From assembly GCA_014379595.1 (NCBI GenBank), contig JACMLM010000008.1, positions 62,001 through 126,000 on the forward strand: a stretch of 64,000 nucleotides of DNA, in the 5' to 3' direction. Within the stretch, counting starts at the first letter, position 1, and each line of letters opens with the position of its first letter. Position numbers and translations under genes: made by a program. The notes under the pieces are model-generated. The model was not told where the DNA came from, did not search any database, and worked only from the letters and a program-made list of their open reading frames with translations. Below, piece by piece: positions 17,069 to 55,636 of this stretch. This DNA comes from Anaerolineales bacterium (GTDB lineage: Bacteria; Chloroflexota; Anaerolineae; Anaerolineales; Villigracilaceae).

Positions 17069-17143
<75 letters not shown>

Positions 17144-17158
17144 CAGATTGATTTGTAG

Positions 17159-17218
17159 GAGACACAGAGACACTTAATCACGGAGTTAATATCTCTGTAT
17201 TGGGTGTCTTTGTGGTTT
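17159..17218. repeat. Dispersed inverted repeat with octamer-phased arm
   Basis: CACAGAGACAC (17163-17173) pairs with GTGTCTTTGTG (17204-17214) with one wobble, and CGGAG with CTCTG inside. The left arm reads in 8-base steps (ACACAGAG, ACACTTAA, TCACGGAG). It is similar in build to the repeats at 43139, 46876 and 52310. Confidence 0.55.
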
Positions 17219-41976: not shown

Positions 41977-43128
41977 ATGAAAAGCCTTTTAGAGAAAATT
42001 CGATCCTTCTTTGCGTCACTTGGGACCAAACTTAAGCGCAAACCAAAAAGTGAGTCAGCCAATAGCGAATCACCGAGCAGAGGCAAAGCGGATCGTTTTA
42101 CTATTATTAGCTGGGTCGTGACAGTTTTTGTCGTATTAACTTTATTAATTTCGACAATTCTTTACAAGAATTCACTCCCAGCCATAATTCCCCCACTGCC
42201 AACCGCAGTCCCTACAGATACATCAGGCACTGGTCAACCTCAAACTGGAGAACCAGTGAACGGGTCGGCTGCGATCGGAATTTCATCCATCTTGCGTGAA
42301 CTGCAATTAAAGACCAATATCCCGGAAAGACCGCGCTATGAGTCTGTCCTCTACCGTGTTTCCCGCGGTGATGCCATGATGGGTATTGCAGATGATTTTA
42401 AGATCAAATACGAAACCATTCTTTATGTAAACAAACAATTGGATGATAACCCGCACAGCCTTAAGCCCGGCATGGAACTACTCATTCCTCCCATGGATGG
42501 GCTGTATTATGAATGGAAAGATGGCGATACGTTTGAAACTGTTGCGGAAAAATTCTATGCAGATGCAGACGATATACTAACTTTTCCCGGCAACAAAGTT
42601 GACCTCACTGATCCAAAAATAGAGCCAGGGACATTGGTGATGATCCCAGGCGGCTCACGCGAATTACGCAATTGGGCGGCAGATTTGCAAACGCAAGGCA
42701 GAGGAACGGGCACTGGCACATCTGAGATCGGTGGAAACGCATGCGGTGGCGGCCCAGTTGGTTCGGGCCTAGGCTGGCCTGCAGATGATCACACTCTCTC
42801 TGGAAACCCCTACGGCCCCGGTCATCTTGGAATTGATATCTCCGCTCCTGAAGGCTCGAGTGTTTATGCGGCAGGTACTGGCGTTGTGACCATGGCACAA
42901 GGCGGCTACAATTATGGTTACGGCAATGTTATCCAAATTGATCACGGCAATGGATTTGTGACAGTCTATGCCCACTTAAGCCAGATCAATGTGGGGCCAT
43001 GTCAAGCTGTGGGGCAAGGTACATTGATCGGTCTTTCCGGTAATACGGGCAATTCCTTTGGCGCACATTTGCATTTCGAGATCCGCTCCGGCGGCACTAA
43101 CGTCAACCCGTATGAAATTGTTCAATAG
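41977..43128 (+). CDS. LysM-containing M23 family peptidase
   Basis: 383 residues. A charged cytoplasmic N-terminus, a membrane helix around 45-65, two LysM-like segments (about 125-170 and 175-225), then an M23 zinc peptidase domain. The motifs are HLGID (H about 283), HAHLS-type YAHLSQ, and HLHFE near 365, so all zinc ligands are present. It should cut peptidoglycan cross-links outside the membrane. It begins 33 bases after rho. The -10-like CATAAT lies 6 bases upstream. Confidence 0.85.
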   Translation: MKSLLEKIRSFFASLGTKLKRKPKSESANSESPSRGKADRFTIISWVVTVFVVLTLLISTILYKNSLPAIIPPLPTAVPTDTSGTGQPQTGEPVNGSAAIGISSILRELQLKTNIPERPRYESVLYRVSRGDAMMGIADDFKIKYETILYVNKQLDDNPHSLKPGMELLIPPMDGLYYEWKDGDTFETVAEKFYADADDILTFPGNKVDLTDPKIEPGTLVMIPGGSRELRNWAADLQTQGRGTGTGTSEIGGNACGGGPVGSGLGWPADDHTLSGNPYGPGHLGIDISAPEGSSVYAAGTGVVTMAQGGYNYGYGNVIQIDHGNGFVTVYAHLSQINVGPCQAVGQGTLIGLSGNTGNSFGAHLHFEIRSGGTNVNPYEIVQ

Positions 43129-43138
43129 AGACGTAAAC

Positions 43139-43193
43139 AAGTAGACAGGTAGACAGAAACACGATAACTTCCTATGTACTTGTCTACCTACTT
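43139..43193. repeat. Dispersed inverted repeat with octamer-phased arms
   Basis: Left arm AAGTAGAC-AGGTAGAC (43139-43154) is two 8-base units. Right arm TGTCTACC (43181-43188) followed by TACTT pairs with it, with three bases bulged. It lies between the peptidase and birA. Confidence 0.6.
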
Positions 43194-43202
43194 ACTTTTC
43201 CC

Positions 43203-43985
43203 ATGAACGAACACACCATAAAAAAAACTCTCTCAAAATTAAATATTGGCGGCTTGCGCTATTTTGATTCCATTGGCTCCACAAACGATGAAGCCCTGGC
43301 ATGGGCGGCAGACGGCGCAAAGGATCTCTCCATTGTTATTGCGGATGAACAAACGCAGGGCCGCGGCAGACTCAACCGAAAATGGTTCACACCAAAAGGA
43401 ACAGCTCTTGCTTTTAGCCTGATCCTGCGCCCCTCATCAACCCTGCGCCCGCATCTCTCGCGGACCGTTGGCCTGGCTGCGCTTTCAATAGCAGAATCTT
43501 TTTCCAAGCTTGGGCTTGCTCCGCTGATCAAATGGCCGAATGATATTTTACTGAACAATAAAAAAACAGCAGGCATTCTGATCGAAACAGTTTGGTCAGG
43601 TGAGGATGTAGATTCACTTGTGATTGGTATGGGAATCAATGTTTACAAAGCATCCATTCCCCCTGCTGACGTTTTGCAGTTCCCTGCCACAAGCCTTGAA
43701 GATGAGCTGGCGAAAGAACCACCTGCGCGGGAAGAAATATTGTTCAGCATTCTGGAAAAATTCATCCAATGGCGTGAACGGATGGGAACAAATGAGTTTA
43801 TCACTGCCTGGGAAGAGACTCTTGCCTTTCGCGGCCAGCAGGTTCAAATCCACGCTGGAGGCGAAGCCCCGATCACGGGAGAATTGCTCGGCCTCGAATC
43901 AGATGGCAGTCTGCACCTGCGCGACATCCATGACAAATCCATAATAGTCCGATTTGGGGATGTCAGTCTTAGGCCTGCTGCATGA
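43203..43985 (+). CDS. birA: Biotin-protein ligase
   Basis: 260 residues. RYFDSIGSTNDEA, DEQTQGRGRLNRKW (biotinyl-AMP loop), LIKWPNDILLNNKKTAGILIE and GMGINV are the BirA catalytic motifs. There is no N-terminal DNA-binding domain, so it is the monofunctional (group I) type that biotinylates acyl-CoA carboxylases and does not repress. No strong ribosome site is seen. A repeat lies just upstream. Confidence 0.92.
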   Translation: MNEHTIKKTLSKLNIGGLRYFDSIGSTNDEALAWAADGAKDLSIVIADEQTQGRGRLNRKWFTPKGTALAFSLILRPSSTLRPHLSRTVGLAALSIAESFSKLGLAPLIKWPNDILLNNKKTAGILIETVWSGEDVDSLVIGMGINVYKASIPPADVLQFPATSLEDELAKEPPAREEILFSILEKFIQWRERMGTNEFITAWEETLAFRGQQVQIHAGGEAPITGELLGLESDGSLHLRDIHDKSIIVRFGDVSLRPAA

Positions 43986-46875: not shown

Positions 46876-46913
46876 GCACAAAAAGACACGAAGATGGGGG
46901 AAAACTTCGTGTC
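46876..46913. repeat. Dispersed inverted repeat
   Basis: GACACGAAG (46885-46893) and CTTCGTGTC (46905-46913), perfect 9-bp arms with an 11-base loop. The left flank GGCACAAAAA continues the ACAC/AGAC-type phase seen in the repeat at 17159. Confidence 0.55.
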
Positions 46914-52014: not shown

Positions 52015-52305
52015 ATGGATGTTGAACCTCTGTATACAAAGATCGATAAATCAATTCAGGTCAATGCTGGTGTGATCGTGCTGGAGAATCCACAAGGATT
52101 CCCGCGCAACGAAACCAATTTGTATTTAATCGGGCAGAGCGGAAAGATCATCTGGAAAGCTGAAAAACCAGATATAAACGCTTCCTTTTCACGCGTCAAA
52201 CTTAATGAAGATGGTGATACTTTTGCCGCTTACACAGTTAACGGTCACGCTTGTGAGTTGGATTTACAGACAGGGAAGTTGATTAGTTTTACAAGTATTC
52301 AGTAA
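52015..52305 (+). CDS. Small protein of unknown function
   Basis: 96 residues starting 4 bases after the acyl-CoA dehydrogenase stop. The pattern of alternating strands and GQSGKIIWKAEKP, NEDGDTFAAYT and LDLQTGKLISF suggests a small beta-propeller-blade or beta-sandwich fragment, but no family is recognised. The close spacing indicates the same operon. Confidence 0.55.
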   Translation: MDVEPLYTKIDKSIQVNAGVIVLENPQGFPRNETNLYLIGQSGKIIWKAEKPDINASFSRVKLNEDGDTFAAYTVNGHACELDLQTGKLISFTSIQ

Positions 52306-52309
52306 AGAG

Positions 52310-52366
52310 AAGTTAACAAGTTAGCAGGTTTGAACGTTCAAACGTTTCAACTTGCAACCTTTAAAC
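52310..52366. repeat. Dispersed inverted repeat with octamer-phased arm
   Basis: AAGTTAAC-AAGTTAGC-AGGTTTGAAC reads in 8-base steps (52310-52335), then GTTCAAAC and AACTTG fold back. The centre GTTTGAACGTTCAAAC (52328-52343) is a perfect 16-bp palindrome. It shares the AACAAGT-GC/AC-AGG type of arm with 43139. Confidence 0.6.
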
Positions 52367-55594: not shown

Positions 55595-55636
55595 ACTCCC
55601 TTTCTCCAACTCCTTAAGGAGTTGGAGAAAGGGAGT
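55595..55636. repeat. Perfect 42-bp palindrome
   Basis: The two 21-base arms are exact reverse complements with no spacer. The left arm starts ACTCCCTTTCTCC and the centre is CCTTAAGG. It lies between etfA and an AT-rich gene, and no T run follows. It could be a terminator hairpin for etfA or a cruciform-prone site. Confidence 0.75.

What the first reader, a model, noticed from the sequence alone, without database searches (positions are those of the whole stretch)
17159..17218. Dispersed inverted repeats with 8-base-phased arms (four loci)
Hairpins at 17159-17218, 43139-43193, 46876-46913 and 52310-52366 have arms that read as tandem degenerate octamers, such as AAGTAGAC-AGGTAGAC, AAGTTAAC-AAGTTAGC-AGGTTTGAAC and ACACAGAG-ACACTTAA-TCACGGAG, then fold back. 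All are in gaps between genes. The primary sequence differs from locus to locus while the 8-base phase and palindromic shape are kept. That is unusual and suggests a mechanism acting on shape or period, not copying of one sequence.
Basis: partly seen in the sequence, partly recalled or inferred. Interest (0 to 1): 0.6.

Follow-up and report, generated by a model that had tools for sequence, protein, structure and literature searches.

The report
Two-armed short-repeat elements between genes
Gaps between genes in this uncultured bacterium and its relatives are often filled by small elements made of two opposed runs of sloppy 7-9-letter repeats, and related species carry quite different repeat words in the same gap, which may point to a way of building repeats other than ordinary copying.

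Summary
Intergenic DNA sampled from the window's genome is enriched in tandem arrays of period 7, 8 and 9 (not 8 alone) inside palindromes. Of the four loci, 43139 and 52310 pass that screen, 17159 is weaker, and 46876 is a simple hairpin with one unit. The octamer at 43139 (GTANACAN, bases 4 and 8 free) is a dispersed family: 34 hits in this genome, 0 to 317 in 49 same-genus genomes. Its elements run forward units, centre, reverse units: 78 of 78 opposed pairs in one survey. Arms of one element match each other no better than arms swapped between elements (104 elements). In one relative, 20 loci have 20 different centres. Octamer arms begin and end at preferred phases of the unit. In three orthologous gaps in up to 30 same-genus genomes, species carry different families, or none. 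So, for octamers, neither hairpin upkeep nor copying of a finished palindrome fits well. Best reading: each arm is written separately, inward. No enzyme is identified; RVT_1 and Y1 genes associate weakly, uncorrected for descent, and Ku is in 3 of 81 genomes. Five literature searches found no description.

The parts
43131..43156 (+). Left (forward) arm of an octamer element, three GTANACAN units, between ORF 41977-43128 and ORF 43203-43985
   Evidence: similar unit pairs in 25 places of the genome against 6 for the backwards control
43157..43174 (.). Centre of the octamer element
   Evidence: in the five opposed octamer elements recognised in the own-genome loci all five centres differ
43175..43197 (-). 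Right (reverse) arm of the octamer element
   Evidence: RNA fold of 43125-43202 z -3.4
52310..52366 (+). Octamer-phased palindrome of a different unit (AAGTTARC), after ORF 52015-52305
   Evidence: lag-8 score 17, 0 of 2000 shuffles; the two-unit word was found in none of 410 fetched loci
17159..17218 (+). Palindrome resembling the CACNGAG family, with 8-base spacing, after tRNA-Pro (17069-17144)
   Evidence: RNA fold z -6.6; the family occurs elsewhere in the own genome at 9-base spacing; the exact longer word occurs once in the genome
46876..46913 (.). Simple hairpin GACACGAAG...CTTCGTGTC, one unit only; resembles a unit of the CACNAAGNA family but is not a tandem array

Best explanation
These are two-armed repeat elements. 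Each arm is an array of a degenerate 7-9-base unit read inward, and the two arms face each other across a short centre. Shown for the octamer family: dispersal over many loci; forward-then-reverse polarity; arms independent of each other; centres different from locus to locus; arm ends at preferred phases. Shown at three orthologous gaps: different families in different species. Inferred: the arms are not copied as a finished palindrome but written separately, unit by unit, onto the two DNA ends flanking a break or gap, by a repeat-adding synthesis with a strand-specific template, after which the ends are joined and the unmatched middle becomes the centre. Position in gaps between genes would then follow from selection against insertions in genes. 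Any hairpin effect on mRNA would be a by-product.
For: Polarity of opposed pairs 75 of 75 (17 further neighbours were in the same direction) and, in an overlapping re-survey, 78 of 78 for GTANACAN (20 same-direction) and 19 of 19 for GACNATN; over 19 unit patterns 134 forward-reverse against 6 reverse-forward, some elements counted under more than one pattern. A third count with 16 patterns gave homotypic FR 70, RF 4, RR 10, FF 3 and heterotypic FR 12, RR 9, FF 4, RF 3. Own-arm pairing 16.74 against 16.87 for swapped arms, 104 elements, p = 0.64; variable-position identity 0.538 against 0.543, 101 elements. G001: 20 loci, 20 different centres, longest shared centre word 3.94 against 3.58 when shuffled, left arms 11.1. 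285 octamer arms: 129 start at phase 7 (48 expected for random ends) and 155 end at phase 1 or 2 (83 expected), also in the 233 away from stop codons; GACNATN and CACNAAGNA arms are also phase-bound. Family turnover at three orthologous gaps.
Against: No enzyme or template was found. The window's own genome has no RVT_1 match, nor have octamer-rich G057 and G009, or G066 of another family. RVT_1 presence does go with octamer count in the genus (13 of 15 genomes with 50 or more hits, 26 of 49 overall; p = 0.006; rank correlation of counts 0.26, p = 0.08; not corrected for descent). Ten RT proteins, chosen from 24 RT loci of 13 genomes, gave three above the group II intron cut-off and none above an NCBIfam Drt cut-off; in PADLOC the generic RT model was best in all ten, with RT_UG17 (the DRT10 clade) the best UG model in all ten, group II types included, hence unspecific. 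No octamer pair lies in the 24 loci. Ku is present in 3 of 81 genomes, so Ku-dependent joining is unlikely. TAGTTNNN arms show no clear phase and CGTRAT runs 1 to 3 the other way. In the public contigs 55 octamer loci have 50 different centres, four short centres (4-7 bases) occurring more than once, one of them in two elements on one contig. Fixed phases can also arise by tandem duplication between short direct repeats. The 9-base family mostly shows two or three units per arm and TTAA beside the outer end in 11 of 18 arms, more like a copied element.
Confidence: 0.38

Rival explanations
1. REP- or MITE-like mobile palindromes: each family spread as a whole element by a transposase such as a RAYT/Y1 enzyme, and ectopic recombination and slippage later shuffled arms and unit numbers.
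For: Dispersed intergenic palindromes, patchy copy number 0-317 within one genus, Y1_Tnp genes in 73 of 81 genomes, weak correlation of octamer and Y1 counts (rho 0.30, p 0.04, uncorrected); polarity is expected from one founder per family; the 9-base family has shared outer ends in 11 of 18 arms.
Against: Centres differ between loci, octamer arms are independent, octamer-rich G053 has a single Y1 match, the two copies of the widespread ~550-aa Y1 protein that were read have no octamer element within 300 bases, and heterotypic arms occur.
Confidence: 0.25
2. In-place slippage: pre-existing terminator or spacer hairpins acquire tandem units by replication slippage in each arm, 7-9 bases being the favoured step.
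For: Heptanucleotide repeats are the commonest long simple repeats in most of the genomes surveyed and slippage at a 7-base step has been proposed (Mrazek et al. 2007 as told in PMC4679880, introduction read). At the orthologue of 43139, 8 of 14 genomes have a plain terminator-like hairpin. Adjacent units share variants more than expected (position 4: 0.53 against 0.27; position 8: 0.47 against 0.34), although the way arrays were found favours this.
Against: The same degenerate unit occurs at many unlinked loci, in other families of the order and in Bacteroidota; local slippage from unrelated starting sequences would not give one unit.
Confidence: 0.17
3. Operator or RNA-binding arrays: a protein binds each unit, and the arrays are selected sites.
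For: Six of eight octamer positions are 88-93% conserved and two are free (units kept only if 4 of the 6 fit), as in a binding site; arms independent; intergenic position.
Against: Many unit families coexist; elements lie mostly between co-directional genes, close behind the stop codon, not chiefly in divergent promoter regions; related species have a different family in the same gap.
Confidence: 0.1
4. Ordinary transcription terminators or mRNA-stabilising hairpins whose primary sequence drifts freely.
For: Predicted RNA folds better than shuffled for all eight sequences tried (z -2.1 to -7.1) and terminator-like hairpins at the same site in relatives.
Against: Own octamer arms pair no better than swapped arms; at gap 1 the G001 element folds in another way and less well than that of G000; one gap that is filled in many species is 0-3 bases long in nine others.
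Confidence: 0.1

Closest known systems
REP sequences, GTAG/CGTC-tagged palindromes (PMC3733652, passages read)
   Same: Short dispersed intergenic palindromes, patchy between related genomes
   Different: Centres not shared in the octamer family; arms are tandem arrays of degenerate 7-9-base units, arms independent; many unit families per genome
Heptanucleotide direct repeats: TAACTGA in Beggiatoaceae (PMC4679880, passages and introduction read), (GATAGRA)n in Chloroflexus aurantiacus (PMC6749651, passages read), cyanobacterial STRR sequences (recalled)
   Same: Tandem short units of about 7 bases in many bacteria, often intergenic
   Different: TAACTGA is described as direct repeats with one inverted case; here two opposed arms, degenerate units, several periods, and different families in the same gap in different species
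Telomerase and DRT10 repeat synthesis (PMC12632851, abstract and passages read)
   Same: Tandem repeats (9 bases in Eco3DRT10) made by template realignment, which would give products with fixed start and end phases (inference)
   Different: No RT of that clade or template RNA identified here; the passages read do not say that DRT10 products enter the chromosome

Membership tests
REP / REPIN | Copies of one palindrome with a common core sequence including the loop region | tested here: not met
   (octamer family): G001 20 loci with 20 centres; public contigs 55 loci with 50 centres, the repeated ones only 4-7 bases long
REP / REPIN | Associated RAYT transposase gene flanked by the repeats | tested here: inconclusive
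   Y1 genes common; two copies of the widespread one were read and have no octamer element within 300 bases; the other Y1 genes were not examined
REP / REPIN | GTAG or CGTC tag at one foot of the hairpin | tested here: not met
   Octamer: GTAG is one of four variants of GTAN and recurs along the arm, not at a foot. Other families: seen by eye, not counted
Simple sequence (heptanucleotide) repeats | Head-to-tail tandem units of constant length | tested here: met
   (within each arm)
Simple sequence (heptanucleotide) repeats | Single orientation without an opposed array | tested here: not met
   (many arrays; others have no opposed partner)
Telomerase/DRT10-type repeat addition | Fixed start and end phase of the repeat product | tested here: met
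   strong preference in three of five unit families, moderate in one, none in TAGTTNNN
Telomerase/DRT10-type repeat addition | A reverse transcriptase of that clade with a template RNA | tested here: not met
   no RVT_1 match in the window's genome; ten RTs scanned from relatives are generic or group II type; a template RNA was sought only as an octamer pair in the 24 RT loci
Intrinsic terminator / functional RNA hairpin | Arms kept complementary by selection | tested here: not met
   octamers; small numbers for four further unit patterns

The most novel reading that the evidence does not exclude
A telomerase-like activity in Anaerolineae-type bacteria adds degenerate 7-9-base units to both 3' ends of chromosome breaks, and the healed breaks remain as two-armed repeat scars whose unit sequence changes from species to species as the template changes.
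Probability: 0.13. Interest if true: 0.92.

Novelty: new variant of a known kind. Interest (0 to 1): 0.6.

Why it matters
If the arms are written separately, these elements record a repeat-adding process in bacterial chromosomes that is neither REP transposition nor simple slippage, and they take part in the turnover of spacers between genes in a group of uncultured bacteria. The replacement of one family by another in the same gap makes the process testable with closely related strains.

Tried and rejected
Strict period-8-only reading: rejected, periods 7 and 9 are as strong. Fold-back copying or hairpin selection: not supported for octamers. RAYT/Y1 as the sole driver: not supported, though counts correlate weakly. 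Ku-based joining: Ku in 3 of 81. An apparent rule that free bases are spaced by about half the unit: period 8, 36 of 95 arrays at spacing 4 (13.6 expected); period 7, 27 of 68 at spacing 3 (22.7 expected); so not general. Naming the organism by comparing window proteins with the fetched named loci: three weak hits, the best 45% to L155, a Chloroflexi MAG. Literature: searches found no description of opposed, degenerate 7-9-base arrays (listings seen; four of the listed papers looked into); the library lacks most subscription papers.

Limits: unit patterns and their 'forward' direction were chosen after seeing examples; many arms are related by descent, so p-values are indicative; family labels were assigned by eye; gene calls are simple ORF calls; start-codon calls cut some gaps short; most relatives are draft genomes. 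One search had dropped elements with a repeated centre before counting, meant to remove double fetches; one search recounted by locus: none was lost in G001, five were among the public contigs. Searches dropped identical arms; one search found no element sequence at more than one locus within the sets.

Full report
What is there. The four stretches exist as described and all lie between predicted genes. 52310 (lag-8 score 17) and 43139 pass a genome-wide array screen; 17159 is weaker (p 0.0075 against shuffles); 46876 is a simple hairpin with one unit. The genome (G000, 4.47 Mb in 72 contigs) was sampled in 60 stretches, 1.157 Mb, including the window. Intergenic arrays number 18, 7 and 12 at periods 7, 8 and 9 against about 1.1 each in 60 Markov simulations, and 8, 4 and 6 of them sit in palindromes against 0.1-0.2; period 12 has 2 in palindromes against 0.05.

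Families. The unit at 43139 is a dispersed family: AGTAGACARGTAGACA with up to two mismatches gives 25 places in the genome against 6 for the pattern read backwards (several places belong to one element). GTARACARGTARACA with one mismatch gives 34 hits in this genome against 7 control hits, 317 against 4 in G001, and none in four of the 49 same-genus genomes (own included). A different family, searched as four GAC words with ATs between, has its own patchy distribution (0 to 54 per same-genus genome; 11, 19 and 26 in three genomes of another family of the order). The unit at 52310 was found in none of the 410 fetched loci. From this I infer that the window comes from Anaerolineae or a near group; no call names it. 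Within octamer arrays found by period in G001, positions 1-3 and 5-7 are 88-93% conserved and positions 4 and 8 are free (75 units kept if at least 4 of 6 fixed positions fit).

Anatomy. Opposed arrays run forward units, short centre, reverse units. The order was forward-reverse in 75 of 75 octamer pairs, and in an overlapping survey 78 of 78 for octamers, 19 of 19 for GACNATN, and 134 against 6 over 19 unit patterns with some overlap between patterns. With 16 patterns and overlap removed, homotypic neighbours were FR 70, RF 4, RR 10, FF 3, and neighbours of different families within 70 bases FR 12, RR 9, FF 4, RF 3, so an arm can be a mosaic of units and the two arms can belong to different families.

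Arms and centres. In 104 octamer elements the arms of one element fit each other no better than arms exchanged between elements (16.74 against 16.87). Four further unit patterns with 19, 5, 7 and 5 elements also showed no excess. Centres in 20 G001 elements share little more than shuffled ones (3.94 against 3.58; one of 190 pairs shares 8 bases), while left arms share words of 11; the 20 loci have 20 different centres. In the public contigs 55 loci have 50 centres, the repeated ones being 4-7 bases long. So for octamers neither hairpin selection nor copying of a finished palindrome fits well. Arm ends are phase-bound: of 285 arms 129 start at phase 7 and 81 at phase 1 (48 and 62 expected), and 67 and 88 end at phases 1 and 2 (44 and 39 expected). 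This holds for the 233 arms not near a stop codon. GACNATN (114 arms) and CACNAAGNA (18) are also phase-bound, RGTTNNA (62) moderately, TAGTTNNN (18) not. The 9-base family differs: mostly two or three units per arm and TTAA beside the outer end in 11 of 18 arms.

Same gap, different words. For the 43139 gap 31 genomes were searched and 20 matched; in the 14 with both flanking genes, three have octamers, eight a terminator-like hairpin, one a CATTGCGAG repeat and two nothing. For two octamer gaps elsewhere in the genome 61 genomes were searched, 45 matched, and the 30 best loci, all of the genus, were fetched. The occupants, by eye: gap 1 (28 readable) octamer 3, GACNATN 7 plus 2 partial, TAGTTNGA 3, GGTCGAG-type repeat 2, plain hairpins 8, none 3; gap 2 (30) octamer 3, TTTCNTC 2, TTACG 4, RGTTNNA 6, GACNATN 1, TTACTATTTACC-like 1, CATTGCGAG 2, GGTCGAG-type 2, other 1, none 8. 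A third gap in the same loci, 0 bases in G000 and so not chosen for an element there, is phased in 14 of 30 (3 octamer, 11 others), has two GGTCGAG-type repeats, one plain hairpin, nine gaps of 0-3 bases, three unclear and one at a contig end. On a tree of the flanking proteins the families are scattered; the three octamer carriers at gaps 1 and 2 are not sisters. The close relatives G004 and G011 have different hairpins, and the sisters G034 and G031 a plain hairpin and a GACNATN element, between conserved flanks. Some inheritance or transfer exists: G001 and G031 share a centre and arm variants at the third gap, and GACNATN elements of gap 1 align between species.

Placement. Most occupied gaps are co-directional, in a share similar to or somewhat above that of unoccupied ones (own 27 of 34 against 328 of 488; G001 33 of 47 against 182 of 265; G017 13 of 15 against 111 of 174; public loci 90 of 130 against 180 of 279). 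In them the median distance to the upstream stop codon is 1-12 bases and to the downstream start 26-42. The sampled part of one genome of the genus, G033 (200 kb), had no period 7-9 array at the threshold used, although G033 has a partial array at gap 1 and a TTTCNTC array at gap 2.

Candidate machinery. Y1_Tnp is in 73 of 81 genomes, RVT_1 in 36 of 81, Ku in 3 of 81. In the genus octamer count goes weakly with Y1 count (rho 0.30, p 0.04) and with RT presence (13 of 15 genomes with 50 or more hits have one; 26 of 49 overall; p 0.006; rank correlation of counts 0.26, p 0.08), none corrected for descent. The window's genome has no RVT_1 match. Ten RT proteins chosen from 24 fetched loci of 13 genomes were scanned: three are above the group II intron cut-off and none above a Drt cut-off; in PADLOC, which carries no cut-off, the generic RT model is best in all ten and RT_UG17, the DRT10 clade, is the best UG model in all ten, group II types included. 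No octamer pair lies in the 24 loci. There is thus no enzyme to name.

Reading. The combination of a shared unit, differing centres, independent arms, fixed polarity and preferred phases fits separate, unit-wise writing of two arms toward each other better than copying a palindrome, slippage alone, or selection for a hairpin. The telomerase-like version is the boldest and rests on analogy with DRT10 (PMC12632851, abstract and passages read). The weakest links are the missing enzyme, the possibility that fixed phases come from tandem duplication between short direct repeats, and the different look of the 9-base family.

Noticed in passing
window 55595-55636: Perfect 21-base palindrome ACTCCCTTTCTCCAACTCCTT/AAGGAGTTGGAGAAAGGGAGT between ORFs, with some 6- and 8-base self-match.
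   Followed up: no
own genome sample, e.g. L052 downstream of 19732; L224; L358-L386: Two further dispersed repeat families, CATTGCGAGGAGG...GACGAAGCAATC and GGTCGAGTAG...GTATCGAGACC, are in the own genome sample and occupy the studied gaps in some other species; neither word is in excess in the window.
   Followed up: partly
L052:18065-19732 and L332 (minus strand): A ~550-aa protein with a Y1_Tnp match near its C-terminus, long-frame Y1 matches of this size being listed for many genomes of the genus, beside a gene that looks like polA (name and the regulator-like look of its N-terminus are recalled); no octamer element within 300 bases in the two copies read.
   Followed up: partly
L307, L336, L337, L355, L069 and others: The CACNAAGNA/CACNGAG family has mostly two or three units per arm and often TTAA-like outer ends, unlike the octamer family.
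   Followed up: partly
L099, L100, L103, L111, L158: Bacteroidota contigs carry GTAAACAA arrays, some long and near-perfect (L099, L100), some grading into GTTGACGA-like units (L103, L111, L158).
   Followed up: no
L387-L410: Reverse transcriptase genes of the genus include group II types and a ~350-aa type that looks like diversity-generating retroelement RT (label recalled, not from a call).
   Followed up: partly
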